Assembly: GCF_050947875.1 (NCBI RefSeq)
Contig: NC_134574.1
Span: 156,881,534 to 156,945,533 of the forward strand
Direction: 5' to 3'
DNA: 64,000 bases
From: Dermacentor variabilis
Taxonomy: Eukaryota > Arthropoda > Arachnida > Ixodida > Ixodidae
This document shows, piece by piece, positions 43,764-62,655 of the stretch (position 1 is its first letter; the number at the start of each line of letters is the position of its first letter). The position numbers were made by a program, and so were the translations under genes. The notes beneath the pieces were generated by a model that searched no databases, was not told the origin of the DNA, and worked only from the letters and a program-made list of their open reading frames with translations.

Positions 43764-43770
43764 TATAAAA
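43764..43770 (+). promoter_or_regulatory. LTR TATA box
   Basis: TATAAAA in the 5' LTR, conserved in all full LTRs here (for example 53825-53831). Confidence 0.8.
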
Positions 43771-43880
43771 ACAGCTGCCCCCGGACGCCAGAAGAGGGCT
43801 CCGATTTCTTCCGTTGAGTGAAGTGCTCTCCCGTCTCTCTACTTCGGTCAAACCTGACCGCCAACTCTTTGCGATGTTAA

Positions 43881-43886
43881 AATAAA
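43881..43886 (+). terminator. LTR polyadenylation signal
   Basis: AATAAA about 115 bp after the TATA box, present in every LTR copy in the window. Confidence 0.75.
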
Positions 43887-44060
43887 CAAGTTGTTTCGTT
43901 GTTACCTGTCGACTCATGCTTTGCCGGGACCTTCGGATGCTTGCAGTTGTACCCCAGGCCGCCAGGCCAACGCTACCCTTGGGGCTTGCGACCCAGGTAC
44001 AACCACGGGCGTCAGCGCCGAGTTCCCAACAGATCGTACCAGAAGTCAGGTCCAAACATC

Positions 44061-44078
44061 TGGTGGCAGCGGTGGGAT
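44061..44078 (+). other. Primer-binding site, matches tRNA-Leu 3' end
   Basis: TGGTGGCAGCGGTGGGAT starts two bases after the LTR. It is complementary to the 3' end (with CCA) of the animal tRNA-Leu(AAG) type as I recall it. The other three element ends in the window carry altered versions. Confidence 0.75.
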
Positions 44079-44412
44079 CGCCTACGACTTCAAACAACGG
44101 TCTGCCAGCGGCGAGATCGCGACAACGGAGGCCAGCAGCAAAGAGATGCAGTTGACAGTATGCTGAGCAGCTCAACGACGATCCGGGAGCAGTGCAACGA
44201 GCCCTGTGTGACGACTGGTTGCCTGCAGCGGAACGACTGCGCGGAATTCCTGCCTGCGAGGTTTGGTGAGTGCGGGACTTTCTTCTACTGAGCTTTGCCA
44301 GGCTTTTTTTTAGTGTCAGAAACAGAGCTGGTAATTGTGGTTGTCGTTGCTGCCGGGTTAGTTTGCGGCAAGACAATAGTAAGCAGTAGAGAAAGCAGCA
44401 TTCAGAGCAGCC

Positions 44413-45197
44413 ATGGATTTGAAGTCGTTGCGCAAACCGAAATTGTTGGAGCTTGCAAGAGAGTTGGGTCTGGATGTCTCAGACAAACTAAGAAAACCGG
44501 AACTGATAACGGCTATTCTTGAGTTAGAGGCTGAGGATGACGAGCTGTCGGAATGCCTTGAGACTATTGAGGAGAGGTCAAAAAGACAGGAGCGCGAACT
44601 TAAAGAGCAGAAAGAAAAAGAAGAGCGCGAACACGCTTTGGAAATGAAGCGTCTCGAGGTAGAGATGGAACGCGCTCGTAATGGAAGTCAGGCACACGGT
44701 GCAGGAGAACGCGTATTGTTCAAAATGACTGACCTGATGCGGCCGTTTAAGCTTGGAGAGGACATTGGTTTGTTCCTGGTTAACTTTGAGCGAACGTGCG
44801 AGAAGCAGGGGTTCTCTCGGGAAACGTGGCCACAGCGCTTGCTCACTTTGTTACCCGGCGAGGCGGCCGACGTAGTCGCTCGCTTGGATAGAGAGGAAGC
44901 AGAGGATTTCGACAAAGTAAAATCGAGTCTGCTAAAAAAGTACCGGCTGTCTGCGGAAGCGTTCCGTCGGAAGTTTCGGGAAAATGAGAAAGGCAAAAGT
45001 GAGTCATATACAGAGTTTGCGTATAGGCTTATGTCGAACATGCAGGAGTGGCTCAAAGAAGAGAAAGCGTTTGGTGACCACGATAAAGTTCTGCAGTGTT
45101 TCGGGCTAGAACAGTTTTATAGTCGGTTACCGGAGAACGTGCGATACTGGGTCTTGGATAGGCCAGACGTGAGTACGGTGGCTAGAGCCGCTGAGCT
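44413..45197 (+). pseudogene. Truncated gag, triplication unit 1
   Basis: This encodes the first 260-odd residues of the Gag found at 47572 (SAP-like start, coiled coil, most of the SCAN-like region), then runs into the inverted copy at GAGCTC (45193-45198). The open frame continues to 45237 only through inverted sequence. It lacks the zinc knuckle and all Pol domains. If translated it would give a capsid fragment ending near the SCAN-like helices. Confidence 0.85.
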
Positions 45198-46006
45198 CGA
45201 CGCGTCACAAACTCCTCGGCTAGCTCAGCGGCTCTAGCCACCGTACTCACGTCTGGCCTATCCAAGACCCAGTATCGCACGTTCTCCGGTAACCGACTAT
45301 AAAACTGTTCTAGCCCGAAACACTGCAGAACTTTATCGTGGTCACCAAACGCTTTCTCTTCTTTGAGCCACTCCTGCATGTTCGACATAAGCCTATACGC
45401 AAACTCTGTATATGACTCACTTTTGCCTTTCTCATTTTCCCGAAACTTCCGACGGAACGCTTCCGCAGACAGCCGGTACTTTTTTAGCAGACTCGATTTT
45501 ACTTTGTCGAAATCCTCTGCTTCCTCTCTATCCAAGCGAGCGACTACGTCGGCCGCCTCGCCGGGTAACAAAGTGAGCAAGCGCTGTGGCCACGTTTCCC
45601 GAGAGAACCCCTGCTTCTCGCACGTTCGCTCAAAGTTAACCAGGAACAAACCAATGTCCTCTCCAAGCTTAAACGGCCGCATCAGGTCAGTCATTTTGAA
45701 CAATACGCGTTCTCCTGCACCGTGTGCCTGACTTCCATTACGAGCGCGTTCCATCTCTACCTCGAGACGCTTCATTTCCAAAGCGTGTTCGCGCTCTTCT
45801 TTTTCTTTCTGCTCTTTAAATTCGCGCTCCTGTCTTTTTGACCTCTCCTCAATAGTCTCAAGGCATTCCGACAGCTCGTCATCCTCAGCCTCTAACTCAA
45901 GAATAGCCGTTATCAGTTCCGGTTTTCTTAGTTTGTCTGAGACATCCAGACCCAACTCTCTTGCAAGCTCCAACAATTTCGGTTTGCGCAACGACTTCAA
46001 ATCCAT
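45193..46006 (-). pseudogene. Truncated gag, triplication unit 2 (inverted)
   Basis: A minus-strand copy of the gag start, identical in translation to units 1 and 3 except one Leu-to-Phe change in the coiled coil. It ends at the same inversion junction. The palindrome with unit 1 has arms of about 1.58 kb around a ~24-bp centre. Confidence 0.85.
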
Positions 46007-46361
46007 GGCTGCTCTGAATGCTGCTTTCTCTACTGCTTACTATTGTCTTGCCGCAAACTAACCCGGCAGCAACGACAACCACAATTACCAGCTCTGTTTC
46101 TGACACTAAAAAAAAGCCTGGCAAAGCTCAGTAGAAGAAAGTCCCGCACTCACCAAACCTCGCAGGCAGGAATTCCGCGCAGTCGTTCCGCTGCAGGCAA
46201 CCAGTCGTCACACAGGGCTCGTTGCACTGCTCCCGGATCGTCGTTGAGCTGCTCAGCATACTGTCAACTGCATCTCTTTGCTGCTGGCCTCCGTTGTCGC
46301 GATCTCGCCGCTGGCAGACCGTTGTTTGAAGTCGTAGGCGATCTCACCGCTGGCAACCAGA

Positions 46362-46772
46362 TGTTTGGACCTGACTTCTGGTACGATCTGTTGGGAACTC
46401 GGCGCTGACGCCCGTGGTTGTACCTGGGTCGCAAGCCCCAAGGGTAGCGTTGGCCTGGCGGCCTGGGGTACAACTGCAAGCATCCGAAGGTCCCGGCAAA
46501 GCATGAGTCGACAGGTAACAACGAAACAACTTGTTTATTTTAACATCGCAAAGAGTTGGCGGTCAGGTTTGACCGAAGTAGAGAGACGGGAGAGCACTTC
46601 ACTCAACGGAAGAAATCGGAGCCCTCTTCTGGCGTCCGGGGGCAGCTGTTTTTATACTCTCGCAGTTGAGGGCAAGAAGGAACCCCTCAAAAGACGAGCA
46701 CGTGAATGTACAATGGGCTAATGGTGACGCACACTGTCGTAGCGATGCCGTAGCACCATGTCGTGGCGCTGC
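46362..46772 (-). repeat. Partial LTR, inverted unit
   Basis: The 3' part of an LTR on the minus strand (end TGTTTGG on the plus strand at 46362). It breaks inside the 23-bp U3 repeats at the centre of a 26-bp perfect palindrome (46760-46785). Confidence 0.85.
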
Positions 46773-47216
46773 GCAGCGCCACGACCAGGTGCTACGAGAT
46801 CGTGCGCAGCGCCACGACATGGTGCTACGGCATCGCTACGACAGTGTGCGTCACCATTAGCCCATTGTACATTCACGTGCTCGTCTTTTGAGGGGTTCCT
46901 TCTTGCCCTCAACTGCGAGAGTATAAAAACAGCTGCCCCCGGACGCCAGAAGAGGGCTCCGATTTCTTCCGTTGAGTGAAGTGCTCTCCCGTCTCTCTAC
47001 TTCGGTCAAACCTGACCGCCAACTCTTTGCGATGTTAAAATAAACAAGTTGTTTCGTTGTTACCTGTCGACTCATGCTTTGCCGGGACCTTCGGATGCTT
47101 GCAGTTGTACCCCAGGCCGCCAGGCCAACGCTACCCTTGGGGCTTGCGACCCAGGTACAACCACGGGCGTCAGCGCCGAGTTCCCAACAGATCGTACCAG
47201 AAGTCAGGTCCAAACA
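46773..47216 (+). repeat. Partial LTR, third unit
   Basis: 444 bp from the U3 23-bp repeats to the CCAAACA end, including TATA and AATAAA signals. It precedes the leader of the full Gag-Pol frame. Confidence 0.85.
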
Positions 47217-47571
47217 TCTGGTTGCCAGCGGTGAGATCGCCTACGACTTCAAACAACGGTCTGCCAGCGGCGAGATCGCGACAACGGAGGCCAGCAGCAA
47301 AGAGATGCAGTTGACAGTATGCTGAGCAGCTCAACGACGATCCGGGAGCAGTGCAACGAGCCCTGTGTGACGACTGGTTGCCTGCAGCGGAACGACTGCG
47401 CGGAATTCCTGCCTGCGAGGTTTGGTGAGTGCGGGACTTTCTTCTACTGAGCTTTGCCAGGCTTTTTTTTAGTGTCAGAAACAGAGCTGGTAATTGTGGT
47501 TGTCGTTGCTGCCGGGTTAGTTTGCGGCAAGACAATAGTAAGCAGTAGAGAAAGCAGCATTCAGAGCAGCC

Positions 47572-50500
47572 ATGGATTTGAAGTCGTTGCGCAAACCGAA
47601 ATTGTTGGAGCTTGCAAGAGAGTTGGGTCTGGATGTCTCAGACAAACTAAGAAAACCGGAACTGATAACGGCTATTCTTGAGTTAGAGGCTGAGGATGAC
47701 GAGCTGTCGGAATGCCTTGAGACTATTGAGGAGAGGTCAAAAAGACAGGAGCGCGAACTTAAAGAGCAGAAAGAAAAAGAAGAGCGCGAACACGCTTTGG
47801 AAATGAAGCGTCTCGAGGTAGAGATGGAACGCGCTCGTAATGGAAGTCAGGCACACGGTGCAGGAGAACGCGTATTGTTCAAAATGACTGACCTGATGCG
47901 GCCGTTTAAGCTTGGAGAGGACATTGGTTTGTTCCTGGTTAACTTTGAGCGAACGTGCGAGAAGCAGGGGTTCTCTCGGGAAACGTGGCCACAGCGCTTG
48001 CTCACTTTGTTACCCGGCGAGGCGGCCGACGTAGTCGCTCGCTTGGATAGAGAGGAAGCAGAGGATTTCGACAAAGTAAAATCGAGTCTGCTAAAAAAGT
48101 ACCGGCTGTCTGCGGAAGCGTTCCGTCGGAAGTTTCGGGAAAATGAGAAAGGCAAAAGTGAGTCATATACAGAGTTTGCGTATAGGCTTATGTCGAACAT
48201 GCAGGAGTGGCTCAAAGAAGAGAAAGCGTTTGGTGACCACGATAAAGTTCTGCAGTGTTTCGGGCTAGAACAGTTTTATAGTCGGTTACCGGAGAACGTG
48301 CGATACTGGGTCTTGGATAGGCCAGACGTGAGTACGGTGGCTAGAGCCGCTGAGCTAGCCGAGGAGTTTGTGACGCGTCGAGCTCGCGGAGCTAAGGACG
48401 GTCAAAAGGGTGAATTTGGCTCCAAGTCTGAGAGGCCAAGGTTCACGCCCATGAGATTTAAGGGGGACACGCGTAGTGAGGATGCGAGTGAAAGCAATCC
48501 GACCAAACGTAAAGAGACGGCAGCCGAAGCCGAACGCAGAAAGCGGTTCGAGATGAGGCGAGCGGGCGTTTGTTATACGTGCCAGAAGCCGGGTCACTTT
48601 TCGGCGCAGTGTCCGGAAACAACACCAAAAGTTGTGTTTTTTTCAATAGGCAGCACGGACGAGAACATGAAGCTTCTCGAGCCTTACATGCGAGACCTCC
48701 TCGTGAACGGGAAAGAGTGCCGAGTGCTTCGCGATTCCGCAGCTACGATGGATGTAGTTCACCCATCTTACGTAGAACCCCATATGTTCACGGGCGAGTG
48801 CGCGTGGATCAAGCAAGCCGTGGAAGCTCATAGCGTGTGTCTGCCAGTAGCAAAGGTGCTCATTGAAGGACCTTTCGGAGCGCTTGAGACGGAGGCGGCA
48901 GTGTCATCTATGCTGCCACCCCAGTACCCGTACCTATTTTCAAACAGGTCCGATCACCTCCTGCGCGAGAAGGGGCTTTTGTTTGGTGAAGCTAGTGTTC
49001 AGGCCTTAACCAGATCGAAGGTTCGGGAGCTCGCTGCAAAGGCGGTAGTTGCGGGGCCGACGTTATCAAACAACGAAAAAGGGTCAGAGGCGCAGCAAGC
49101 TGATATTCAGAGCACGCCCGAACTGAATAGACTTGAGTCTGTAACGTTAAAGGCGCCAGATACTGGAGAGGAAAATCCCGACGCGGGAAAGTTAGAAGAG
49201 CTATCTACTGATTTGCTCATCGCGCCTACGTCAGACGGACTTGATAGGTTGCTAAAAGTCAGCCGGACGGCTTTGATAGCCGAGCAAAAAAAGGATGGCA
49301 GCCTGGAAAACGTGCGCTGCAATGTCAAAGAAGGTATCGCCAGGAAAACTGCGCGTTTTGTGGAAAGAGGTGGAGTCCTGTACCGGAAGTATCTAGACCG
49401 CCGAGGAGTGGAGTTCGATCAGCTGGTCGTGCCTCAATGCTATCGTCAGGATCTGTTGCGCTTGTCACATGGGGGTTCGTGGTCCGGACACCTAGGAGTT
49501 AAGAAAACTAAGGACCGTCTCTTGCAAGAGTACTATTGGCCAGGGTGTTTTCGGGACGCAGACCATTTCGTGAGGACATGTGACACTTGTCAGCGGGTGG
49601 GCAAACCAGGGGACAAATCAAGGGCGCCGTTGAAATTGGTACCTATCATAACGGAGCCTTTTAGACGGCTCGTTATTGATACTGTGGGACCTCTGCCGGT
49701 AACAGCCACGGGGTACAGACACATTTTGACTGTGATCTGCCCAGCGACAAAGTTCCCTGAAGCAGTGCCGCTTAAAGAACTCAGCTCAGTTGAGATAGTT
49801 AATGCACTACTGTCCATATTTGCGCGAGTTGGTTTTCCTGCGGAAATCCAATCAGATCAGGGCACAGTGTTTACTAGCGCTTTGACGACAACTTTTCTCG
49901 AAAGGTGTGGGGTAAAGCTGTTACACAGCTCAGTGTACCACCCACAGTCGAATTCCGTTGAGAAGCTCCACTCCGTCATGAAGCGCGTGTTGAGAGCGTT
50001 GTGTTTTGAACATCGAACTGACTGGGAGCTGTGTCTGCCTGGGGTGATGTTTGCTTTAAGGACCGCGCCGCATGCGGCTACGGGGTTTTCGCCAGCTGAA
50101 CTGGTGTACGGTCGCTCGCTTCGATCTCCGCTTCGCATGCTTCGAGAATCATGGGAAGGTAGGGGCGACGACCCAGTCGTGGTGGAGTACGTACTTAAGC
50201 TCCTCGAACGCTTAAGAAGGGCACAGGAGTTGTCAGGTGAAGCAATGACAAAGGCCCAGCAGAGGGCCAAGGTTTATTATGATCGGACAGCCAGGGCCCG
50301 TCGTTTTGAGGTTGGCGATGAGGTCATGATATTGCGCACATCGCTAAACAACAAACTAGACGTGCAGTGGGAGGGCCCAGCACGAATTGTTCAGAAACTG
50401 TCGGACGTTAACTACGTGGTAAGTCTGCCAGGAAAGCGGAAAGCACAGCAAGTTTACCACTGTAATCTGCTCAAACCTTATAGACAAAGGGAAGCAGTGG

Positions 50501-51996
50501 TGTGCATGATGGTAAACGTTCCTGAAGAGCTTCCGGTCGAGCTTCCGGGACTAGGCTCAGTGACGAACAAGGAAGACACCGGTCAAGTCATTAGTGACCT
50601 TATCAGTAAAGCACCGCTGTCGCCTGAGCAGAAAACCGAACTACACCAGCTATTACAAGAGTTTCAAGGTCTGTTCTCTGAGAGGCCTGGTAGGACTTCG
50701 GTACTTACTCATGATATTGAACTTACCTCCCCAGAGCCAGTACGATCCAAGGCGTATCGGGTGTCACCCCGCCAGAGCGATATTATGGAGGCGGAGGTAA
50801 AGAAAATGCTACGGCTCGGTGTTATTGAGGCAGGTGAGAGTGATTATACCTCCCCTTTGATTTTAGTTGAGGTACCGGGCAAGGAACCTCGTCCTTGCGT
50901 CGACTACCGCAGGCTTAATTCCATCACTAAGGATCAAATTTATCCGATCCCTAACATCGAGGAGCGCCTTGAGAAAGTTAGTAGCGCTCAGTTTATTTCC
51001 ACCCTAGATCTTGTCAGGGGTTATTGGCAGGTTCCACTTACAGAAGAGGCTAGTAGGTATGCGGCGTTCATTTCACCAATGGGAACATTCCGTCCTAAAG
51101 TGTTGAGTTTTGGTTTGAAGAACGCGCCATACTGTTTTTCAAGCCTCATGGATAAAGTGTTGCGGGGACAGCAAGAATTCGCTTTACCGTATCTAGACGA
51201 CGTAGCGATATTCTCCGCATCCTGGTCTGAGCATATGACACACTTGCGGGCAGTGCTAACCCGCCTGCGCGAAGCAGGCTTGACAGTAAAGGCTCCTAAG
51301 TGCCAGTTAGCACAGGCCGAGGTTGTCTACCTCGGTCACGTGATTGGTCAGGGTCGTCGCCGCCCCTCTGAAATAAAAGTGGCCGCTGTGCGAGACTTTC
51401 CGCAACCGCGCACAAAGACCGATATTCGGTCGTTCTTAGGTGTCGCCGGCTACTATCAGAGGTACATCCCTAGGTACTCTGATATCGCGGCTCCCCTGAC
51501 GGATGCTCTAAGAAAAACAGAGCCTCAAACAGTCGTCTGGGACGAGACAAAGGAAAGAGCTTTTAGCGCCCTAAAGAGTGCCCTAACAAGCCAGCCTGTG
51601 CTACGATCGCCAGACTATACAAAAGGGTTCATTGTTCAGTGCGATGCTAGTGAGCGAGGCATGGGCGTTGTACTGTGCCAACGGGAAAATGGAGAAGTAG
51701 AACACCCCGTCCTGTATGCTAGTCGTAAGCTGACCAGTCGTGAGCAGGCGTATAGCGCCACCGAGAAAGAGTGTGCGTGTCTCGTGTGGGCCGTTCAGAA
51801 ATTGTCATGCTATCTAGCCGGCTCGAGGTTTATCATTGAGACGGATCACTGCCCTCTCCAATGGCTGCAGACCATCTCTCCCAAAAATGGCCGCCTCCTG
51901 CGCTGGAGCCTCGCTTTACAACAATATTCCTTTGAGGTGCGTTACAAAAAGGGGAGTCTCAACGGTAACGCCGATGGCTTAAGTCGAAGCCCCTAA
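47572..51996 (+). CDS. gag-pol: Gag-Pol polyprotein, Gmr1-like (protease-integrase-reverse transcriptase-RNase H order)
   Basis: 1474 residues, one frame, no gag/pol shift. In order: SAP-like helices (2-37); charged coiled coil (40-92); capsid (about 101-270), whose part from 178 resembles SCAN (GLEQFYSRLPENVRYWVLD at 231-249); CCHC knuckle C334-C337-H342-C347; protease D388-S389-A390 where D-S/T-G is usual; integrase zinc site H633, H640, C670, C673; integrase catalytic D703, D762, E797; GPY/F-type module near W933-E-G-P936; reverse transcriptase with CVDYRRLN (1109-1116), D1146 and YLDD (1207-1210); RNase H with D1358, E1398, D1425 and D1468. It stops just after RNase H. The ATG at 47572 is the first in frame and lies in CAGCCATGG. 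The protein would build the particle, copy the RNA and integrate it. Integrase before reverse transcriptase is the defining oddity. It appears intact. Confidence 0.95.
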   Translation: MDLKSLRKPKLLELARELGLDVSDKLRKPELITAILELEAEDDELSECLETIEERSKRQERELKEQKEKEEREHALEMKRLEVEMERARNGSQAHGAGERVLFKMTDLMRPFKLGEDIGLFLVNFERTCEKQGFSRETWPQRLLTLLPGEAADVVARLDREEAEDFDKVKSSLLKKYRLSAEAFRRKFRENEKGKSESYTEFAYRLMSNMQEWLKEEKAFGDHDKVLQCFGLEQFYSRLPENVRYWVLDRPDVSTVARAAELAEEFVTRRARGAKDGQKGEFGSKSERPRFTPMRFKGDTRSEDASESNPTKRKETAAEAERRKRFEMRRAGVCYTCQKPGHFSAQCPETTPKVVFFSIGSTDENMKLLEPYMRDLLVNGKECRVLRDSAATMDVVHPSYVEPHMFTGECAWIKQAVEAHSVCLPVAKVLIEGPFGALETEAAVSSMLPPQYPYLFSNRSDHLLREKGLLFGEASVQALTRSKVRELAAKAVVAGPTLSNNEKGSEAQQADIQSTPELNRLESVTLKAPDTGEENPDAGKLEELSTDLLIAPTSDGLDRLLKVSRTALIAEQKKDGSLENVRCNVKEGIARKTARFVERGGVLYRKYLDRRGVEFDQLVVPQCYRQDLLRLSHGGSWSGHLGVKKTKDRLLQEYYWPGCFRDADHFVRTCDTCQRVGKPGDKSRAPLKLVPIITEPFRRLVIDTVGPLPVTATGYRHILTVICPATKFPEAVPLKELSSVEIVNALLSIFARVGFPAEIQSDQGTVFTSALTTTFLERCGVKLLHSSVYHPQSNSVEKLHSVMKRVLRALCFEHRTDWELCLPGVMFALRTAPHAATGFSPAELVYGRSLRSPLRMLRESWEGRGDDPVVVEYVLKLLERLRRAQELSGEAMTKAQQRAKVYYDRTARARRFEVGDEVMILRTSLNNKLDVQWEGPARIVQKLSDVNYVVSLPGKRKAQQVYHCNLLKPYRQREAVVCMMVNVPEELPVELPGLGSVTNKEDTGQVISDLISKAPLSPEQKTELHQLLQEFQGLFSERPGRTSVLTHDIELTSPEPVRSKAYRVSPRQSDIMEAEVKKMLRLGVIEAGESDYTSPLILVEVPGKEPRPCVDYRRLNSITKDQIYPIPNIEERLEKVSSAQFISTLDLVRGYWQVPLTEEASRYAAFISPMGTFRPKVLSFGLKNAPYCFSSLMDKVLRGQQEFALPYLDDVAIFSASWSEHMTHLRAVLTRLREAGLTVKAPKCQLAQAEVVYLGHVIGQGRRRPSEIKVAAVRDFPQPRTKTDIRSFLGVAGYYQRYIPRYSDIAAPLTDALRKTEPQTVVWDETKERAFSALKSALTSQPVLRSPDYTKGFIVQCDASERGMGVVLCQRENGEVEHPVLYASRKLTSREQAYSATEKECACLVWAVQKLSCYLAGSRFIIETDHCPLQWLQTISPKNGRLLRWSLALQQYSFEVRYKKGSLNGNADGLSRSP

Positions 51997-52482
51997 CGTA
52001 GGAATCAGCCTCAAAATTGTTTGTTACTGATGTTTTTCTTCCTGAGGCAGGATTTTTTTTAACATATTGCTTTTGTTTAGTGTTTCAAAGTGATGATATG
52101 CTTTCTAGTGCAATTTTTCAATTTGTGGACGCGTTCTGAGTGATGCTAGACTACTGTAAGGAACTAGGCAGTGGTATAAAAGGGGGAAAGAGCCTGGCAG
52201 GGCTTAGTGAGGGTTGTGCCGTGCTTGCTGACTGAGCGGTTGAGTTTTCAGCGTAGTTCTAACGCTTGCCGGGAACGAGAACAAAAATGTGAACTCTCCC
52301 GAAGTCACTTTGCAGTGTCCCGTGCGAACCTGAACGAGAGAACGAAGCCTTCTCTGTGCGCTGCGCTCAAGAAACATCAAGGGACGCCCGACTTCGGTTA
52401 TGAGCATCATCGAGCGACATCCCTCCGGACAGCGGATGCAGTCCCCTGTCCATCGGGATCTCCTTTCCCCGGCGGGGCGGTC
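51997..52482 (+). other. 3' internal untranslated region with a second TATA box
   Basis: No env-like frame follows pol. A TATAAAA lies at 52175-52181 inside GTGGTATAAAAGGGGG, conserved in copy 2 at 59145-59151. The sequence before the 3' LTR (GGCGGGGCGGTC) is a poor polypurine tract. Confidence 0.6.
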
Positions 52483-53309
52483 TGTTGCGTTTCGCCTGCG
52501 ACACGTGGTTTTGCCGGCGCGACGGCGGCGGGGCGGCGGACATTTTGGCCCGATCGTCGTCACCGCAACACTCATCGCCAGGTGTTTCCAGGCGCGTCTG
52601 CGGCGATGCGACCGCCTAGGGATTTCGTTCCAGTCATTGTGCCCGAAACAGGCGAGGCCAAAGCAGGGATCTCCTTCCAGTTATTGGGCCCGAAACAGGC
52701 GATGCCAAAGCAGGGATCTCGTTCCAGTCATTGTGCCCGAAACAGGCGATGCCAAAGCAGGGACCATCTTCTCGTTACAGTCATTGTGTCCGACCGGCAG
52801 CGCCACGACAGTGTGCTGCGCAGCGCCACGACAGTATGCTGCGCAGCGCCACGACAGTGTGCTGCGCAGCGCCACGACCAGGTGCTACGAGATCGTGCGC
52901 AGCGCCACGACATGGTGCTACGGCATCGCTACGACAGTGTGCGTCACCATTAGCCCATTGTACATTCACGTGCTCGTCTTTTGAGGGGTTCCTTCTTGCC
53001 CTCAACTGCGAGAGTATAAAAACAGCTGCCCCCGGACGCCAGAAGAGGGCTCCGATTTCTTCCGTTGAGTGAAGTGCTCTCCCGTCTCTCTACTTCGGTC
53101 AAACCTGACCGCCAACTCTTTGCGATGTTAAAATAAACAAGTTGTTTCGTTGTTACCTGTCGACTCATGCTTTGCCGGGACCTTCGGATGCTTGCAGTTG
53201 TACCCCAGGCCGCCAGGCCAACGCTACCCTTGGGGCTTGCGACCCAGGTACAACCACGGGCGTCAGCGCCGAGTTCCCAACAGATCGTACCAGAAGTCAG
53301 GTCCAAACA
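52483..53309 (+). repeat. 3' LTR of copy 1
   Basis: 827 bp, 46 bp longer than the 5' LTR, exactly two extra 23-bp units of the CAGCGCCACGACAGTGTGCT type (about 52800-52880). By eye the rest is identical. Confidence 0.92.
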
Positions 53310-53338
53310 CCGTTCTCTTTCAGTTTCAGTTTATTCAG
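53310..53338. other. 29-bp host spacer between the two elements
   Basis: It starts with CCGT (target duplication of copy 1) and ends with TCAG (target duplication of copy 2). Confidence 0.9.
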
Positions 53339-54119
53339 TGTTGCGTTTCGCCTGCGACACGTGGTTTTGCCGGCGCGACTGCGGCGGGGCGGCAGACATT
53401 TTGGCCCGATCGTCGTCGCCGCAACACTCATCGCCAGGTGTTTCCAGGCGCGACTGCGGCGATGCGACCGCCTAGGGATCATCCTCGCATTCCAGTCATT
53501 GTGCCCGAAACAGGCGATGCCAAAGCAGGGATCTCATTCCAGTCATTGTGCCCGAAACAGGCGATGCCAAAGCAGGGATCTCATTCCAGTCATTGTGCCC
53601 GAAACAGGCGATGCCAAAGCAGGGACCATCCTCTCATTACAGTCATTGTGCCCGACCGGCAGCGCTACAACAGGGTGCTACGAGATCGTGCTCGACAGGG
53701 TGCTACGAGATCGTGCTCGTCATGGTGCTACGGCATCGCTACGACAGTGTGCGTCACCATTAGCCCATTGTACATTCACGTGCTCGTCTTTTGAGGGGTT
53801 CCTTCTTGCCCTCAACTGCGAGAGTATAAAAACAGCTGCCCCCGGACGCAAAAAGGAGGGCTCCGATTTCTTCTGTTGAGTGAAGTGCTCTCCCGTCTCT
53901 CTACTTCGGTCAACCTGACCGCCAACTCTTTGCGATGTTAAAATAAACAAGTTGTTTTGTTGTTACCAGTCGACTCATGCTTTGCCGGGACCTTCGGATG
54001 CTTCCAGTTGTACCCCAGGCCGCCAGGCCAACGCTACCCTTGGGGCTTGCGACCCAGGTACAACCACGGGCGTCAGCGCCGAGTTCCCAACAGATCGTAC
54101 CAGCAGTCCGATCCAAACA
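53339..54119 (+). repeat. 5' LTR of copy 2
   Basis: 781 bp with three 47-bp U3 repeats (about 53490-53630) and two ~25-bp GACAGGGTGCTACGAG-type repeats instead of the 23-bp units of copy 1. TATAAAA is at 53825-53831 and AATAAA at 53942-53947. The primer-binding site after it (from 54122) reads TGGTTGGCAGCGGTGAGAT, one base inserted and one changed relative to copy 1. Confidence 0.92.
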
Positions 54120-54473
54120 TCTGGTTGGCAGCGGTGAGATCGCCTACGACTTCAAACAACTGTCTGCCAGCGGTGAGATCGCGACAACGGAGGCCAGCAG
54201 CAAAGAGATGCAGTTGACTGTATGCTGAGCAGCTCAACGACGATCCGGGAGCAGTGCAACGAGCCCTGTGTGACGACTGGTTGCCTGCAGCGGAACGACT
54301 GCGCGGAATTCCTGCCTGCGAGGTTTGGTGAGTGCGGGACTTTCTTCTTCTGAGCTTTGCCAGGCTTTTTGTTAGTGTCAGAAACAGAGCTGGTAATTGT
54401 GGTTGTCGTTGCTGCCGGGTTAGTTGCGGCAAGACAATAGTAAGCAGTAGAGAAAGCAGCATTCAGAGCAGCC

Positions 54474-57400
54474 ATGGATTTGAAGTCGTTGCGCAAACCG
54501 AAATTGTTGGAGCTTGCAAGAGAGTTGGGTCTGGATGTCTCAGACAAACTCAGAAAACCAGAACTGCTAAAGGCTATTCTTGAGTTAGAGGCTGAGGATG
54601 ACGAGCTGTCGGAATGCCTTGAGACTATTGAGGACAGGTCAAAAAGACAGGAGCGCGAACTTAAAGAGCAAAAAGAGAAACAGGAGCGCGAACTTAAAGA
54701 GCAAAAAGAGAAACAGGAGCGCGAACTTAAAGAGCAGAAAGAAAAAGAAGAGCGTGACCGTCAACACGCTTTGGAAATGAAGCGTCTTGAGGTAGAGATG
54801 GAACGCGCTCGTAATGGAAGTCAGGCACACGGTGCAGGAGAACGCGTATTGTTCAAAATGACTGACCTGATGCGGCCGTTTAAGCTTGGAGAGGACATTG
54901 GTTTGTTCCTGGTTAACTTTGAGCGAACGTGCGAGAAGCAGGGGTTCTCTCGGGAAACGTGGCCACAGCGCTTGCTCACTTTGTTACCCGGCGAGGCGGC
55001 CGACGTAGTCGCTCGCTTGGATAGAGAGGAAGCAGAGGATTTCGACAAAGTAAAATCGAGTCTGCTAAAAAAGTACCGGCTGTCTGCGGAGGCGTTCCGT
55101 CGGAAGTTTCGGGAAAATGAGAAAGGCAAAAGTGAGTCATATACAGAGTTTGCGTATAGGCTTATGTCGAACATGCAGGAGTGGCTCAAAGAAGAGAAAG
55201 CGTTTGGTGACCACGATAAAGTTCTGCAGTGTTTCGGGCTAGAACAGTTTTATAGTCGGTTACCGGAGAACGTGCGATACTGGGTCTTGGATAGGCCAGA
55301 CGTTTGTACGGTGGCTAGAGCCGCTGAGCTAGCCGAGGAGTTTGTGACGCGTCGAGCTCGCGGAGCTAAGGACGGTCAAAAGGGTGAATTTGGCTCGAAG
55401 TTTGAGAGGCCGAAGTTCACACCCATGAGATTAAAGGGGGACACGCGTAGTGCGGATGCGAGTGAAAGCAGTCCGACCAGACGTAAAGAGACGGCGGCAG
55501 CCAAACGCAGAAAGCGGTTCGAGATGAGGCGAGCGGGCGTTTGTTATACGTGCCAGAAGCCGGGTCACTTTTCGGCGCAGTGTCCGGAAACAACACCAAA
55601 AGTTGTGTTTTTTTCAATAGGCAGCACTGACGAGAACATGAAGCTTCTCGAGCCTTACATGCGAGACCTCCTCGTGAACGGGAAAGAGTGCCGAGTGCTT
55701 CGCGATTCCGCAGCTACGATGGATGTAGTTCACCCGTCTTATGTAGAACCCTATATGTTCACGGGCGAGTGCGCGTGGATCAAGCAAGCCGTGGAAGCTC
55801 ATAGCGTGTGTCTGCCAGTAGCAAAGGTGCTTATTGAAGGACCTTTCGGAGCGCTTGAGACGGAGGCGGCAGTGTCATCTATGCTGCCACCCCAGTACCC
55901 GTACCTATTTTCAAACAGGTCCGATCACCTCCTGCGCGAGAAGGGGCTTTTGTTTGGTGAAGCTAGTGTTCAGGCCTTAACCAGATCGAAGGTTCGGGAG
56001 CTCGCTGCAAAGGCGGTAGTTGCGGGGCCGACGTTATCAAACAACGAAAAAGGGTCAGAGGCGCAGCAAGCTGATATTCAGAGCACGCCCGAACTGAATA
56101 AAATTGAGTCTGTAGCGTTGAAGGCGCCAGATACTGGAGAGGAAAATCCCGATTCGGGAAAGTTAGAAGAGCTATCTACTGATTTGCTCATCGCGCCTAC
56201 GTCAGACGGACTTGATAGGTTGCTAAAAGTCAGCCGGTCGGCTTTGATAGCCGAGCAAAAAAAGGATGGCAGCCTGGAAAACGTGCGCTGCAATGTCAAA
56301 GAAGGTATCGCCAGGAAAACTGCGCGTTTTGTGGAAAGAGGTGGAGTCCTGTACCGGAAGTATCTAGACCGAAGAGGAGTGGAGTTCGATCAGCTGATCG
56401 TGCCTCAATGCTATCGTCAGGATCTGTTGCGCTTGTCACACGGGGGTTCGTGGTCCGGACACCTAGGAGTTAAGAAAACTAAGGACCGTCTCTTGCAAGA
56501 GTACTATTGGCCAGGGTGTTTTCGGGACGCAGACCATTTCGTGAGGACATGTGACACTTGTCAGCGGGTGGGCAAACCAGGGGACAAATCGAGGGCGCCG
56601 TTGAAATTGGTACCTATCATTACGGAGCCTTTTAGACGGCTCGTTATTGATACTGTGGGACCTCTGCCGGTAACAGCCACGGGGTACAGACACATTTTGA
56701 CTGTGATCTGCCCAGCGACAAAGTTCCCTGAAGCAGTGCCGCTTAAAGAACTCAGCTCAGTTGAGATAGTTAATGCACTACTGTCCATATTTGCGCGAGT
56801 TGGTTTCCCTGCGGAAATCCAATCAGATCAGGGCACAGTGTTTACAAGCGCTTTGACGACAACTTTTCTCGAAAGGTGTGGGGTAAAGCTGTTACACAGC
56901 TCAGTGTACCACCCACAGTCGAATTCCGTTGAGAAGCTCCACTCCGTCATGAAGCGCGTGTTGAGAGCGTTGTGTTTTGAACATCGAACTGACTGGGAGC
57001 TGTGTCTGCCTGGGGTGATGTTTGCTTTAAGGACCGCGCCGCATGCGGCTACGGGGTTTTCGCCAGCTGAACTGGTGTACGGTCGCTCGCTTCGATCTCC
57101 GCTTCGCATGCTTCGAGAATCATGGGAAGGCAGGGGCGACGACCCAGTCGTGGTGGAGTACGTGCTTAAGCTCCTCGAACGCTTAAGAAGGGCACAGGAG
57201 TTGTCAGGTGAAGCAATGACAAAGGCCCAGCAGAGGGCCAAGGTTTATTATGATCGGACAGCCAGGGCCCGTCGTTTTGAGGTGGGCGATGAGGTCATGA
57301 TATTGCGCACATCGCTAAACAACAAACTAGACGTGCAGTGGGAGGGCCCAGCACGAATTGTTCAGAAACTGTCGGACGTTAACTACGTGGTAAGTCTGCC

Positions 57401-58967
57401 AGGAAAGCGGAAAGCACAGCAAGTTTACCACTGTAATCTGCTCAAACCTTATAGACAAAGGGAAGCAGTGGTGTGCATGATGGTAAACGTTCCTGAAGAG
57501 CTTCCGGTCGAGCTTCCAGGACTAGGCTCAGTGACGAACAGGGAAGACACCGGTCAAGTCATTAGTGACCTTATCAGTAAAGCACCGCTGTCGCCCGAGC
57601 AGAAAACCGAACTACACCAGCTATTACAAGAGTTTCAAGGTCTGTTCTCTGAGAGGCCTGGTAGGACTTCTGTACTTACTCATGATATAGAACTTACCTC
57701 CACAGAGCCAGTACGATCCAAGGCGTATCGGGTGTCACCCCGCCAGAGCGATATTATGGAGGCTGAGGTAAAGAAAATGCTACAGCTCGGTGTTATTGAG
57801 GCAGGTGAGAGTGATTATACCTCCCCTTTGATTTTAGTTGAGGTACCGGGCAAGGAACCTCGTCCTTGCGTCGACTACCGCAGGCTTAATTCCATCACTA
57901 AGGATCAAATTTATCCGATCCCTAACATCGAGGAGCGCCTTGAGAAAGTTAGTAGCGCTCAGTTTATTTCCACCCTAGATCTTGTCAGGGGTTATTGGCA
58001 GGTTCCACTTACAGAAGAGGCTAGTAGGTATGCGGCGTTCATTTCACCAATGGGAACATTCCGTCCTAAAGTGTTGAGTTTTGGTTTGAAGAACGCGCCA
58101 TACTGTTTTTCAAGTCTCATGGATAAAGTGTTGCGGGGACAGCAAGAATTCGCTTTACCGTATCTAGACGACGTAGCGATATTCTCCGCATCCTGGTCTG
58201 AGCATATGGCACACTTGCGGGCAGTGCTAACCCGCCTGCGCGAAGCGGGCTTGACAGTCAAGGCTCCTAAGTGCCAGTTAGCACAGGCCGAGGTTGTCTA
58301 CCTCGGTCACGTGATTGGTCAGGGTCGTCGCCGCCCCTCTGAAATAAAAGTGGCCGCTGTGCGAGACTTTCCGCAACCGCGCACAAAGACCGATATTCGG
58401 TCGTTCTTAGGTGTCGCCGGCTACTATCAGAGGTACATCCCTAGGTACTCTGATATCGCGGCTCCCCTGACGGATGCTCTAAGAAAGACAGAGCCTCAAA
58501 CAGTCGTCTGGGACGAGACAAAGGAAAGAGCTTTTAGCGCCCTAAAGAGTGCCCTAACAAGCCAGCCTGTGCTACGATCGCCAGACTATACAAAAGGGTT
58601 CATTGTTCAGTGCGATGCTAGTGAGCGAGGCATGGGCGTTGTACTGTGCCAACGGGAAAATGGAGAAGTAGAACACCCCGTCCTGTATGCTAGTCGTAAG
58701 CTGACCAGTCGTGAGCAGGCGTATAGCGCCACCGAGAAAGAGTGTGCGTGTCTCGTGTGGGCCGTTCAGAAATTGTCATGCTATCTAGCCGGCTCGAGGT
58801 TTATCATTGAGACGGATCACTGCCCTCTCCAATGGCTGCAGACCATCTCTCCCAAAAATGGCCGCCTCCTGCGCTGGAGCCTCGCTTTACAACAATATTC
58901 CTTTGAGGTGCGTTACAAAAAGGGGAGTCTCAACGGTAACGCCGATGGCTTAAGTCGAAGCCCCTAA
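54474..58967 (+). CDS. gag-pol: Gag-Pol polyprotein, Gmr1-like, longer coiled coil
   Basis: 1497 residues in one open frame, nearly identical to the protein of copy 1 and with the same domain order and catalytic residues (shifted by +23: CCHC at 357-370, protease D411-S-A, integrase D726, D785, E820, reverse transcriptase YLDD at 1230-1233, RNase H D1381, E1421, D1448, D1491). The extra length comes mainly from two more copies of an 11-residue QERELKEQKEK unit in the Gag coiled coil, three in all, plus DRQ for E nearby and one residue lost before the knuckle. The integrase D-to-E spacing is 34 residues, one less than the usual 35, as in copy 1. No stop or frameshift is seen, and with matching LTRs this copy could be active. 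Confidence 0.95.
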   Translation: MDLKSLRKPKLLELARELGLDVSDKLRKPELLKAILELEAEDDELSECLETIEDRSKRQERELKEQKEKQERELKEQKEKQERELKEQKEKEERDRQHALEMKRLEVEMERARNGSQAHGAGERVLFKMTDLMRPFKLGEDIGLFLVNFERTCEKQGFSRETWPQRLLTLLPGEAADVVARLDREEAEDFDKVKSSLLKKYRLSAEAFRRKFRENEKGKSESYTEFAYRLMSNMQEWLKEEKAFGDHDKVLQCFGLEQFYSRLPENVRYWVLDRPDVCTVARAAELAEEFVTRRARGAKDGQKGEFGSKFERPKFTPMRLKGDTRSADASESSPTRRKETAAAKRRKRFEMRRAGVCYTCQKPGHFSAQCPETTPKVVFFSIGSTDENMKLLEPYMRDLLVNGKECRVLRDSAATMDVVHPSYVEPYMFTGECAWIKQAVEAHSVCLPVAKVLIEGPFGALETEAAVSSMLPPQYPYLFSNRSDHLLREKGLLFGEASVQALTRSKVRELAAKAVVAGPTLSNNEKGSEAQQADIQSTPELNKIESVALKAPDTGEENPDSGKLEELSTDLLIAPTSDGLDRLLKVSRSALIAEQKKDGSLENVRCNVKEGIARKTARFVERGGVLYRKYLDRRGVEFDQLIVPQCYRQDLLRLSHGGSWSGHLGVKKTKDRLLQEYYWPGCFRDADHFVRTCDTCQRVGKPGDKSRAPLKLVPIITEPFRRLVIDTVGPLPVTATGYRHILTVICPATKFPEAVPLKELSSVEIVNALLSIFARVGFPAEIQSDQGTVFTSALTTTFLERCGVKLLHSSVYHPQSNSVEKLHSVMKRVLRALCFEHRTDWELCLPGVMFALRTAPHAATGFSPAELVYGRSLRSPLRMLRESWEGRGDDPVVVEYVLKLLERLRRAQELSGEAMTKAQQRAKVYYDRTARARRFEVGDEVMILRTSLNNKLDVQWEGPARIVQKLSDVNYVVSLPGKRKAQQVYHCNLLKPYRQREAVVCMMVNVPEELPVELPGLGSVTNREDTGQVISDLISKAPLSPEQKTELHQLLQEFQGLFSERPGRTSVLTHDIELTSTEPVRSKAYRVSPRQSDIMEAEVKKMLQLGVIEAGESDYTSPLILVEVPGKEPRPCVDYRRLNSITKDQIYPIPNIEERLEKVSSAQFISTLDLVRGYWQVPLTEEASRYAAFISPMGTFRPKVLSFGLKNAPYCFSSLMDKVLRGQQEFALPYLDDVAIFSASWSEHMAHLRAVLTRLREAGLTVKAPKCQLAQAEVVYLGHVIGQGRRRPSEIKVAAVRDFPQPRTKTDIRSFLGVAGYYQRYIPRYSDIAAPLTDALRKTEPQTVVWDETKERAFSALKSALTSQPVLRSPDYTKGFIVQCDASERGMGVVLCQRENGEVEHPVLYASRKLTSREQAYSATEKECACLVWAVQKLSCYLAGSRFIIETDHCPLQWLQTISPKNGRLLRWSLALQQYSFEVRYKKGSLNGNADGLSRSP

Positions 58968-59451
58968 CGTAGGAATCAGCCTCAAAATTGTTTGTTACTG
59001 ATGTTTTTTTTCCTGAGGCAGGATTTTTTTAACATATTGCTTTTGTTTAGTGTTTCAAAGTGATGATATGCTTTCTAGTGCAATTTTTCAATTTGTGGAC
59101 GCGTTCTGAGTGATGCTAGACTACTGTAAGGAACTAGGCAGTGGTATAAAAAGGGGAAAGAGCCTGGCAGGGCTTAGTGAGGGTTGTGCCGTGCTTGCTG
59201 ACTGAGCGGTTGAGTTTCAGCGTAGTTCTAACGCTTGCCGGGAACGAGAACAAAAATGTGAACTCTCCCGAAGTCACTTTGCAGTGTCCCGTGCGAACCT
59301 GAACGAGAGAACGAGGCCTTCTCTGTGCGCTGCGCTCAAGAAACGTCGAGGGACGCCCGACTTCGGTTATGAGCATCATCGAGCGACATCCCTCCGGACA
59401 GCGGATGCAGTCCCCTGTCCATCGGGATCTCCTTCCCCCGGCGGGGCGGTC
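58968..59451 (+). other. 3' internal untranslated region of copy 2
   Basis: Colinear with 51997-52482, including TATAAAA at 59145-59151. No env-like frame. Confidence 0.6.
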
Positions 59452-60233
59452 TGTTGCGTTTCGCCTGCGACACGTGGTTTTGCCGGCGCGACTGCGGCGG
59501 GGCGGCAGACATTTTGGCCCGATCGTCGTCGCCGCAACACTCATCGCCAGGTGTTTCCAGGCGCGACTGCGGCGATGCGACCGCCTAGGGATCATCCTCG
59601 CATTCCAGTCATTGTGCCCGAAACAGGCGATGCCAAAGCAGGGATCTCATTCCAGTCATTGTGCCCGAAACAGGCGATGCCAAAGCAGGGATCTCATTCC
59701 AGTCATTGTGCCCGAAACAGGCGATGCCAAAGCAGGGACCATCCTCTCATTACAGTCATTGTGCCCGACCGGCAGCGCTACAACAGGGTGCTACGAGATC
59801 GTGCTCGACAGGGTGCTACGAGATCGTGCTCGTCATGGTGCTACGGCATCGCTACGACAGTGTGCGTCACCATTAGCCCATTGTACATTCACGTGCTCGT
59901 CTTTTGAGGGGTTCCTTCTTGCCCTCAACTGCGAGAGTATAAAAACAGCTGCCCCCGGACGCAAAAGGGAGGGCTCCGATTTCTTCTGTTGAGTGAAGTG
60001 CTCTCCCGTCTCTCTACTTCGGTCAAACCTGACCGCCAACTCTTTGCGATGTTAAAATAAACAAGTTGTTTTGTTGTTACCAGTCGACTCATGCTTTGCC
60101 GGGACCTTCGGATGCTTCCAGTTGTACCCCAGGCCGCCAGGCCAACGCTACCCTTGGGGCTTGCGACCCAGGTACAACCACGGGCGTCAGCGCCGAGTTC
60201 CCAACAGATCGTACCAGCAGTCCGATCCAAACA
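59452..60233 (+). repeat. 3' LTR of copy 2
   Basis: 782 bp; starts TGTTGCG, ends CCAAACA, followed by TCAG. It differs from its 5' partner by about one added A (near 60026) and one A/G change in the A-rich run near 59965. Confidence 0.92.
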
Positions 60234-62655
60234 TCAGACATACATTGCCTTGGGTTGAAAGGACTAAAGGCAGATGAACTCTGCCTGACTAAGCTCCCTC
60301 CCTTCACCCATACATTTTCAATACATTTTCAAACAATGTTGGTCACAAAGTGGTCAACATTGATTTTGTCACATTGCTCGCGGTCCCGTAACAATACGTA
60401 TACGTTTTACGAAGAGCACATTTCCGTGTTTTAGAGATAACTGGTGACCTCTAGCTTGTTTAGCGGTGGTATGCACTCGAATTCAAATGTTTTGAACAAC
60501 TTTCGTCCGACTAAAGTTGGCAACAATGGGAATCCGCAGAATTTACAGGCGCTATTCATAAGTTACCGAAGTGCCACTTGGCATGTTGCATCATGGACAA
60601 CATGACGCACCGCACTTAAGGTATCAATAACATCGGCACTTCCTTTTGACTTTAACAAGAAAGAAAAAAAAAGAACACAAGCCTATGCGGGTATTGCCAT
60701 AATTTCAAATAAAGAGTGTTGGCCACCTATAGAAATATGGAAATGTGCAGATATTTCCGATACTCCGCGAGAGGTGTGATAACATTTCGGCACCAATTTT
60801 GGCGAGAGGTGTCTCCACGAAACTCTTCAGCAATACCCTGACGTCACTTCTGGGACTCTTAATTACATCTTGCATCTGAAGGGGCAAAACTCGAAGTTGT
60901 CGCAACGCTAATGTATGTAAATGTGGAATAAACAACGAGCCTATATCTCTGTGTGAACGTTGCACTGTGTTATTTTAGCGCTTGAGAATGATCAGCACTT
61001 TGTGCATTGTGTGCATTGCCATTTTAATGTTTTCACGCTTTGAACAAAGTTGAAGCCTGGCATATGCGTTTCCTGGGGATCGAGGAAAATTGAGCAGTCT
61101 GATTTTTTCTAAGAGCATCGTTGATATCGCTCGTGATGTGAACGTTGCTTTGTTTTGCGAATGGTATGTTGTTAACTTTTTTTTATTAGAACAATCAAAC
61201 GAGACCCTAGCGCTTTTAATTGGCGCCAGCTCGTCATTGAGCAAGGAAAAGGTACGGGCACACAGTAAAGTCCAAGAATAAGCACATGTGCACATACGAT
61301 GGAATCAGCTGAATCAGTGTGAATGTGACGTATTTAAAATTCCACACGCACACATGCACCGACAACGCCCCGATGATTTGCGCACCGTGCGGTGAAGGCA
61401 GAATGTAAGAGGGACAAAGTTCTTACAGCACGAATCCACATAAGCACATACGTAATCACACCAATGTAAGTTCACACTATAGTGGAATCACATTAACGTA
61501 AAGCAAATTCACAAATAGTGCTTGGTCATGAGTAGCGGAAATTTGTGTATACGGTTGGTAAAGTTCAATGCCACCACAGCGCAGTTGAAGACACTGCCGC
61601 TCCAGTTTGGCAAGCACCGCCTGGCCGGCTCCTCCCGGCACGAGAACTCTGAGGCGAGCTCTGCCGAGGGTGAGCGTAGCTTAGGCTTAGGTTTCCTCCT
61701 TTAGGGTCCACGAGAGGTCGCTACTGTCCATAGCTTGACTCAGGCGTTCGCGATCACGCGAAACGCTAGGGGCAACGCAGACTGCTCTGCTTCCTCGGGA
61801 GATTTGCAAACCCTCCTGCTCTCTCTCTCTTCAAAGTCAGCTACGGACAGAGCTTCTATACACTCACTCTGATTATTTCCTTCTCTCTGTCTTTAAACAC
61901 GACTGCGTACTTTAAAGCAGACGTCACGTCACCAGGTGTCGCTTCTATACGTTTCGTCCGGCCATGGTTCTATAGTCTGTGTTACGACGACATGCAGTAG
62001 AGGTATTCAATCATACCAATTCAGAAGCTCCCCCATGGACCCAAAGTTTCAAAATCCGGATGCAACTTGTGGCAAAGAGCGCGGGGTTCTGCTGACTGTC
62101 ACGTGACCTATGGAGAACACAACTAACTAAACAAAACATCTTTTTCGGTACAACGAAAAGTGCATAACATCTCGGCACGGAGTGAAAGCAAAGTCAAGTG
62201 GAACGGTGCTTTCAATCAGCACCTTCTTTTTACCTCGGATTATCCATATCAAGCACTTTGTCAGGAGCGATGAGCGAAGGCGAGTCTCAACTTGTCGCTC
62301 AGTGGTGGCGCGTCAGTCAGTTCACCCTCCACGGAAGGGTAGCTGAGCATGTATGACCCGGTGGCGCTACGGAGGTGGAGCACCGCTGCAGTATATGCGG
62401 GCGATTAAACAAGGATACAGTGAAATTTTTAGGCCATAACTTGACGAACCCTCGTGTGAACATTCATAAAGACTTCCTGTAGACTTGGTTGTAGACAACC
62501 GTCCATGCAGACCGCCTTGACTTCGTATATACCGTGGCCCTTTTTGGTCATATGAAGGCCATACAGAGTCTACACTGAATATCGACAGCGCAAAGCGACA
62601 TGAACGGCACAGAAAAGACACATGAACACTGGAAAAGAGCCCAAAGAACTAGCAA
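60234..62655. other. No gene recognised
   Basis: Right flank of the LTR pair. Anonymous sequence with an AATAAA at about 60928 and a short imperfect palindrome near 60335-60361. No coding region is recognised. Confidence 0.5.

What the first reader, a model, noticed from the sequence alone, without database searches (positions are those of the whole stretch)
47572..58967. Ty3/gypsy element with integrase ahead of reverse transcriptase (Gmr1-like) in a probable tick
Both Gag-Pol proteins run protease, integrase, reverse transcriptase, RNase H in one frame, yet the enzyme sequences and the GPY/F module are Ty3/gypsy type. Two separate insertions with different U3 variants share the order, so it is not a local rearrangement. 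The Gmr1 group with this order was described, to my knowledge, from deuterostomes. A chelicerate member with intact copies would widen its range or suggest horizontal transfer.
Basis: partly seen in the sequence, partly recalled or inferred. Interest (0 to 1): 0.9.

Follow-up and report, generated by a model that had tools for sequence, protein, structure and literature searches.

The report
Tick retrotransposon with integrase placed first
Two young, intact-looking copies of a retrovirus-like jumping gene sit side by side in what is probably tick DNA; their enzymes come in an unusual order, but this fits a known family (Gmr1-like) already reported outside the group it was first described from, so it is a good example rather than a surprise.

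Summary
[quoted passage not shown] They are two separate insertions, A 43278-53309 (target duplication CCGT) and B 53339-60233 (TCAG), with nearly identical LTR pairs. Gag holds a SCAN-type capsid domain, as in Gmr1-like elements. Among the listed best hits of two searches, all 202 proteins with one IN and one RT (two are the window's own) have IN first. In the RT tree the IN-first rows form one clade (100/99); the IN tree agrees only once one long-branched fish sequence is left out. Gmr1-like is well supported, though cod Gmr1 itself was not compared. The claimed surprise is not supported: Gmr1-like elements were reported in crustaceans (2013) and an annelid (2021), and databases hold IN-first relatives in other ticks, spiders, a beetle and sponges. 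The window copies nest among ticks in an arthropod branch (100/100), so recent transfer from vertebrates is not indicated. Odder are a D-S-A protease triplet and an inverted triplication in A whose outer primer site looks re-copied from tRNA. New member of a known kind.

The parts
43274..43277 (+). target-site duplication CCGT, left of element A
43278..53309 (+). element A (10,032 bp), Gmr1-like LTR retrotransposon with an internal inverted triplication
43278..44058 (+). 5' LTR of A (781 bp)
   Evidence: no mismatch to the 3' LTR, one 46-base gap
44061..44078 (+). primer binding site of A (outer copy), 18 nt, complement of a tRNA-Leu 3' end (tRNA identity recalled, not from a call)
43610..45197 (+). 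first forward arm of the triplication
45188..46775 (-). reverse arm of the triplication
46768..48356 (+). second forward arm (partial LTR, PBS, leader, start of gag), running on into the intact ORF
47572..51996 (+). Gag-Pol ORF of A, 1474 aa
48115..48381 (+). SCAN-type capsid domain in Gag of A
   Evidence: Pfam PF02023 E 5.6e-14
48568..48618 (+). CCHC zinc knuckle of A
   Evidence: Pfam PF00098
48676..49011 (+). protease region of A, active-site triplet D-S-A
   Evidence: hhalign to relatives' protease pieces; motif
49429..49602 (+). IN zinc-binding domain (H2C2) of A
   Evidence: Pfam PF17921
49651..49944 (+). IN catalytic core (rve) of A; D703, D762 and, just past the Pfam match, E797
   Evidence: Pfam PF00665
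50374..50478 (+). IN C-terminal module of A (Integrase_p58_C, GPY/F-like)
   Evidence: Pfam PF22938
50881..51345 (+). reverse transcriptase of A (YLDD)
   Evidence: Pfam PF00078
51613..51927 (+). RNase H of A
   Evidence: Pfam PF17917
52483..53309 (+). 3' LTR of A (827 bp)
53310..53313 (+). target-site duplication CCGT, right of A
53335..53338 (+). target-site duplication TCAG, left of element B
53339..60233 (+). element B (6,895 bp), simple complete copy
53339..54119 (+). 5' LTR of B
   Evidence: 99.7% to the 3' LTR, 1 mismatch and 1 gap
54474..58967 (+). Gag-Pol ORF of B, 1497 aa
55089..55355 (+). SCAN-type capsid domain in Gag of B
56400..56915 (+). IN zinc-binding and catalytic domains of B
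57852..58316 (+). reverse transcriptase of B
58584..58898 (+). RNase H of B
59452..60233 (+). 3' LTR of B
60234..60237 (+). target-site duplication TCAG, right of B

Best explanation
Two recent, independent insertions of one family of Gmr1-like Ty3/gypsy LTR retrotransposon in a tick, probably Amblyomma. Inferred life cycle: transcription from the LTR; one ORF makes a Gag-Pol polyprotein; the protease cuts it; the SCAN-type capsid makes particles; reverse transcription is primed by a tRNA at the site just inside the 5' LTR; integrase inserts the DNA with a 4-base target duplication. The IN-first order was most likely fixed once, in an early ancestor of the whole clade, and inherited. Once the protease has released the enzymes, the order should matter little. 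Shown here: structure, order, target duplications, LTR similarity, an excess of silent over replacement differences, and the trees. Inferred: the steps of the cycle, the single origin and activity today.
For: Domain order in both copies. Best solved-structure matches of both RT and IN are yeast Ty3. SCAN in Gag. Different 4-base duplications and nearly identical LTR pairs. pN/pS 0.198 between the copies by a simple uncorrected count, 37 synonymous and 24 non-synonymous differences over 1473 codons. IN before RT in 202 of 202 proteins with one IN and one RT among the 239 proteins P0001-P0239 (window's two and the listed hits). IN-first rows are one clade in the RT tree, 100/99, 38 rows, and in the IN tree without the Kryptolebias rows, 99/95, 37 rows.
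Against: In the IN tree with all 49 rows the two identical, long-branched Kryptolebias (normal-order) rows fall inside the IN-first group; a single IN-first clade is not rejected (p-AU 0.175). One axolotl RT (P0318, third of three RTs in a gene model with a short IN piece before it) lies outside the IN-first clade; its near-identical neighbour in the same model is followed by that IN, so its order is unclear. Spider rows show no SCAN match. The cod Gmr1 sequence was not in the trees. Two of the 38 IN-first RT rows (turtles P0111 and P0120) have no detectable IN and were so named by kinship to P0113, whose IN is a fragment. Present activity was not tested, and the host's other copies could not be searched.
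Confidence: 0.94

Rival explanations
1. The order is a misassembly or a local rearrangement of a normal-order gypsy element.
For: Element A does carry an odd forward-reverse-forward structure just upstream.
Against: Two insertions with different target sites share the order in an open frame, and 200 of 200 database proteins with one IN and one RT, window copies left out, share it. The triplication ends before IN.
Confidence: 0.01
2. The element reached ticks by recent horizontal transfer from a vertebrate or other deuterostome.
For: Gmr1-like elements are reported in frogs and fish (passages), and ticks feed on vertebrates.
Against: The nearest named relatives are tick elements (Amblyomma 97-98%, Haemaphysalis 82% in RT-RNase H). 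Turtle, urchin and amphioxus proteins in that list are only 50-52% identical. The arthropod rows form one branch with 100/100. Only the best 120 hits per search were listed, so a rare close vertebrate relative cannot be wholly excluded.
Confidence: 0.03
3. The two copies are a tandem product of recombination between LTRs rather than two insertions.
For: They lie head to tail, 29 bases apart (53310-53338).
Against: Each has its own 4-base duplication and its own LTR variant, and they are joined by unique sequence, not by a shared LTR.
Confidence: 0.02

Closest known systems
Gmr1 clade of Ty3/gypsy (Gmr1 of Atlantic cod and relatives)
   Same: IN upstream of RT, Ty3/gypsy enzymes, SCAN-related Gag, one Gag-Pol ORF of about 1500 aa (Gmr elements of Tetraodontiformes 1506-1634 aa, table passage)
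   Different: Found in a probable tick; protease triplet D-S-A; LTRs 781-827 bp against 337-518 bp in the fish table. Direct comparison with the cod sequence not made.
Crustacean Gmr1-like elements (GyRex4, Gychoro2, GyMaja1, GyLiva4)
   Same: Arthropod members of the Gmr1 clade by the RT/RH tree of PMC3587641 (passages)
   Different: GyRex4 (RT/RH) and GyRex5 (IN) were not shown to be one element in that paper; the window copies are complete. No sequence comparison made here.
Squirrel and Toxo clades of Ixodes scapularis
   Same: Chelicerate Ty3/gypsy clades with CCHC Gag, GPY/F, TG..CA LTRs and 4-bp duplications (PMC4748124, passage)
   Different: Described with two ORFs; whether either has IN first could not be read (supplement not available), so identity with this family is open
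Ty3 (yeast)
   Same: Best PDB sequence match for RT (E 1.1e-63; 2.8e-63 for the whole polyprotein chain) and IN (E 1.7e-28)
   Different: RT match (651-1009) lies before IN match (1086-1447) in Ty3
Ty1/copia elements
   Same: Order PR-IN-RT-RH (from papers)
   Different: Enzymes are not copia-type: Ty3 is the top RT and IN match

Membership tests
Gmr1 clade | IN upstream of RT in pol | tested here: met
   in both copies; 202 of 202 scorable proteins, window copies counted
Gmr1 clade | RT, RNase H and IN of Ty3/gypsy type | tested here: met
Gmr1 clade | Gag capsid related to the SCAN domain | tested here: met
   PF02023 E 5.6e-14 and 2.4e-13; link of SCAN to Gmr1-like Gag from passages
Gmr1 clade | RT tree groups it with deuterostome IN-first elements, apart from normal-order elements | tested here: met
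   100/99; same without Ty3 and plant rows
Gmr1 clade | IN tree groups it with deuterostome IN-first elements, apart from normal-order elements | tested here: inconclusive
   With Kryptolebias not one clade, but not rejected, p-AU 0.175; 99/95 once Kryptolebias is left out
Gmr1 clade | Groups with the named cod Gmr1 sequence | not tested
   No hit bearing that name in the rows shown
Gmr1 clade | Single Gag-Pol frame (as in the fish Gmr table) | tested here: met
   compare
Ty3/gypsy (Metaviridae) generally | LTRs TG...CA, target duplication, PBS inside the 5' LTR | tested here: met
   (tRNA identity of the PBS recalled)
Ty1/copia | copia-type RT and IN | tested here: not met
   Ty3 best
Squirrel or Toxo clade (Ixodes) | Tree position with the published elements | not testable with these tools
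   supplement not readable; main-text passage only

The most novel reading that the evidence does not exclude
IN-first Gmr1-like elements are one ancient animal-wide clade reaching sponges, with a single origin of the swapped order. Inside its arthropod branch a live lineage runs on a protease whose active-site glycine is replaced by alanine (D-S-A). Element A further shows that a copy with a fold-back triplication can retrotranspose as a unit, its outer primer site rewritten from the tRNA while the inner sites keep the old sequence.
Probability: 0.5. Interest if true: 0.42.

Novelty: new member of a known kind. Interest (0 to 1): 0.3.

Why it matters
It corrects the view that the integrase-first gypsy group is confined to deuterostomes and gives two intact, very young copies to work with. 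The single-clade RT result makes the origin of the swapped order testable (one early event, unless moved by transfer). The D-S-A protease and the re-copied primer site are small, testable oddities.

Tried and rejected
Rejected: misassembly of the order; a copia element (Ty3 is the top match); recent vertebrate-to-tick transfer. Led nowhere: a viral-contig scan found no close relative of the RT (2 pattern matches, neither confirmed). Pfam finds no protease (only a below-cut-off spumavirus protease match, E 0.034 and 0.014, in the piece that holds RT), so profile comparison was used. Literature: Gmr1 with tick and retrotransposon (2 papers), Gmr1 with chelicerate, spider and related words (15 of 4,230 listed), Gmr1 alone (40 of 53 listed) and SCAN domain with tick and gypsy (none) showed no paper that names Gmr1 in ticks or chelicerates. 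PMC9415403, listed, holds only a DOI containing gmr18548. The library is open-licence PubMed Central only and the lists were capped, so this does not show that it is unpublished. Emerson and Thomas 2011 and Goodwin and Poulter 2002 are not held and are known only through citing passages. Not followed: the host genome's other copies, because the genome tool did not complete. Rows dropped before trees: 2 of 67 RT pieces and 9 of 58 IN pieces, too short; the two Kryptolebias rows in the repeat IN tree, and Ty3 and the plant rows in the repeat RT tree. Tree rows were a hand-picked sample of the 355 proteins held.
Full report
WHAT IS THERE. The window holds two long open frames, 47572-51996 (1474 aa) and 54474-58967 (1497 aa), 96.8% identical as proteins. 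I annotated each in four pieces with Pfam. Gag has an N-terminal Rho_N-like motif, a SCAN domain (E 5.6e-14 and 2.4e-13) and a CCHC knuckle. Then come the IN zinc-binding, rve and C-terminal (Integrase_p58_C) domains, then RVT_1 and RNase H. IN residues D703, D762 and E797, the RT YLDD box and the RNase H acidic motifs are present in copy A (motifs recalled). The IN C-terminal motif reads GPA rather than GPY/F. The observation that IN lies before RT in one frame in both copies is correct.

TWO INSERTIONS. Self-comparison and the flanks give element B as 53339-60233, with LTRs of 781 and 782 bp (99.7% identical: one mismatch, one gap) and the target duplication TCAG. Element A is 43278-53309, with the duplication CCGT and LTRs that differ by one 46-base gap and no mismatch. 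Both have TG...CA ends. The LTRs of A and B are 89-93% alike. The insertions are separate and recent; no date was computed. Between the ORFs there are 37 synonymous and 24 non-synonymous differences over 1473 codons, pN/pS 0.198 by a simple uncorrected count. In Gag the numbers are 13 and 13, in the protease-linker part 5 and 5, in IN 11 and 3, in RT-RNase H 8 and 3. This is what selection for working enzymes leaves. Present activity was not tested.

ENZYME TYPE. Against solved structures, the best match of both the RT-RNase H piece (E 1.1e-63) and the IN piece (E 1.7e-28) is yeast Ty3. In the Ty3 polyprotein the RT match (651-1009) precedes the IN match (1086-1447). The protease is not named by Pfam. 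A profile of 40 tick-like protease pieces matches a profile of 63 pieces drawn from the search-37 set plus P0108 and P0110 (98.3%, E 2.6e-14).

RELATIVES. A search with the RT-RNase H region (1637 proteins with E up to 0.001 among the 7980 candidates scored, best 120 listed) found Amblyomma americanum at 97-98%, Haemaphysalis longicornis (82% and 74%), Ixodes, Ornithodoros and Rhipicephalus, then spiders (54-59%), the beetle Onthophagus (58%), and sea urchin, amphioxus and turtles (50-52%). A second search from the urchin protein (4463 proteins, best 120 listed) found more echinoderms and amphioxus and three sponge rows: two named Halichondria panicea, and one eukprot row labelled Em0001g1970a that I take from recall to be Ephydatia. 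I scored domain order with HMMs built here, counting domains over 40 bits. Of the 122 proteins P0001-P0122 (window's two included), 87 had one IN and one RT, all IN first; 22 had RT only; 13 had several domains, and the 7 of these that begin with RT are all the pseudoscorpion Cordylochernes. Of the 117 proteins P0123-P0239, 115 had one of each, all IN first; the other two had several domains and begin with IN. So 202 of 202 single-IN, single-RT proteins have IN first, two of them the window's own. In the third search, started from a normal-order Cordylochernes RT, 2 of 116 new proteins had one of each, both RT first; the other 114 were gene models with several domains in mixed strings. The SCAN domain is not seen in the named spider rows, so it is not shared by the whole arthropod branch at this sensitivity.

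TREES. Rows were hand-picked. RT-RNase H, 65 rows: the 38 IN-first rows are one clade (100/99). Two of them (turtles P0111, P0120) have no detectable IN and were so labelled by kinship to P0113. Within it, ticks, spiders, beetle and four unlabelled rows form a 21-row branch (100/100) that holds the window copies, next to Amblyomma and then Haemaphysalis. One axolotl RT preceded by a short IN piece in a three-RT gene model lies outside. IN, 49 rows: the same arthropod branch (100/100), but two identical long-branched Kryptolebias rows (normal order) fall inside the IN-first group. A single IN-first clade is not rejected (p-AU 0.175), and without those rows it is recovered with 99/95. The RT result is unchanged without Ty3 and the plant rows. 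The cod Gmr1 sequence itself was not available.

KNOWN OR NEW. [quoted passage not shown] PMC8220671 puts an annelid family in Gmr1. PMC8556966 lists Gmr1 among clades present in several phyla, but did not find that annelid Gmr1 clade in its own analysis. PMC4592553 and PMC3424704 state that SCAN resembles, or derives from, Gmr1-like Gag. PMC11117352 lists Gmr elements of Tetraodontiformes with single Gag-Pol frames of 1506-1634 aa. The Ixodes genome paper PMC4748124 describes two chelicerate clades, Squirrel and Toxo, either of which might be this lineage; its supplement could not be read. The searches showed no open paper naming Gmr1 in ticks or chelicerates, and no title listed (10 of 836 papers) reports it in sponges; the library is partial and the lists capped. 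So this is a new member of a known kind, and the idea of a deuterostome-only group is out of date.

HORIZONTAL TRANSFER. Recent transfer is not indicated: the closest named sequences are ticks, and the arthropod branch is well supported. Older transfers among phyla remain possible, since the deep branching inside the clade is poorly resolved and does not follow animal phylogeny closely (two of the three sponge rows group with amphioxus, 91/91).

TWO ODDITIES. First, by pattern search, the protease triplet is D-S-A in 24 of 45 IN-first proteins among P0001-P0048 (window's two included; 13 D-S-G, 3 D-T-G, 5 not found), in 4 of 41 among P0052-P0112 (two named Onthophagus), and in 0 of 115 of the search-37 set, where a motif was found in 69. 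In the alignment the named D-S-A rows are Amblyomma, Haemaphysalis and Onthophagus; the named Ixodes, Ornithodoros and Rhipicephalus rows there have D-S-G. Glycine at this place is the rule in such proteases (recalled). Since the frames are otherwise intact in two tick genera, I infer that the variant works. Second, element A contains a forward-reverse-forward triplication of LTR-gag sequence (43610-45197, 45188-46775, 46768-48356). Over the shared stretch the outer forward arm differs from both other arms at only three places, all in the primer binding site (44063, 44066, 44075); one further change is private to the reverse arm. The outer site reads TGGTGGCAGCGGTGGGAT, the complement of a tRNA-Leu 3' end as I recall it; the inner sites and element B carry a slightly different version. 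The simplest reading is that an already triplicated element was transcribed and reverse transcribed, the outer site being re-copied from the tRNA. An assembly artefact from fold-back reads would be expected to give the same primer site in all arms. Element B kept the other version, so re-copying is not always seen. Reads are needed to settle it.

Noticed in passing
43610-48356: Forward-reverse-forward triplication of LTR-gag sequence inside element A. The intact ORF of copy A follows the second forward arm, which has its own partial LTR.
   Followed up: partly
44061-44078, 47219-47237, 54122-54140: Primer binding sites: the outer site of A differs from the inner copies at three places, the only differences that set that arm apart from the other two; suggests re-copying from a tRNA (tRNA-Leu by recall).
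   Followed up: partly
48733-48741 and the same place in element B: Protease active-site triplet D-S-A instead of D-S/T-G, shared with Amblyomma, Haemaphysalis and Onthophagus rows and many unnamed ones, not found in the search-37 set.
   Followed up: partly
P0204, P0216, P0222: Gmr1-like proteins with SCAN, IN and RT from sponges (two named; the third by a recalled label).
   Followed up: partly
47575-47697: Rho_N-like motif at the start of Gag (Pfam above cut-off in A, just below in B); a Diadema relative lists PF02037, the SAP domain by recall (P0126).
   Followed up: no
52796-52880 against 43591-43633: Short tandem repeats in the U3 part of the LTRs of A; by eye the 46-base gap between its two LTRs lies in this array.
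   Followed up: no
22138-24684 (+): Open frame of 848 aa with endonuclease and reverse transcriptase domains, a non-LTR (LINE-type) element by its domains; a weaker RT piece, just below cut-off, lies at 12393-12959.
   Followed up: no
42581-42661: Near-perfect 80-base palindrome just left of element A.
   Followed up: no
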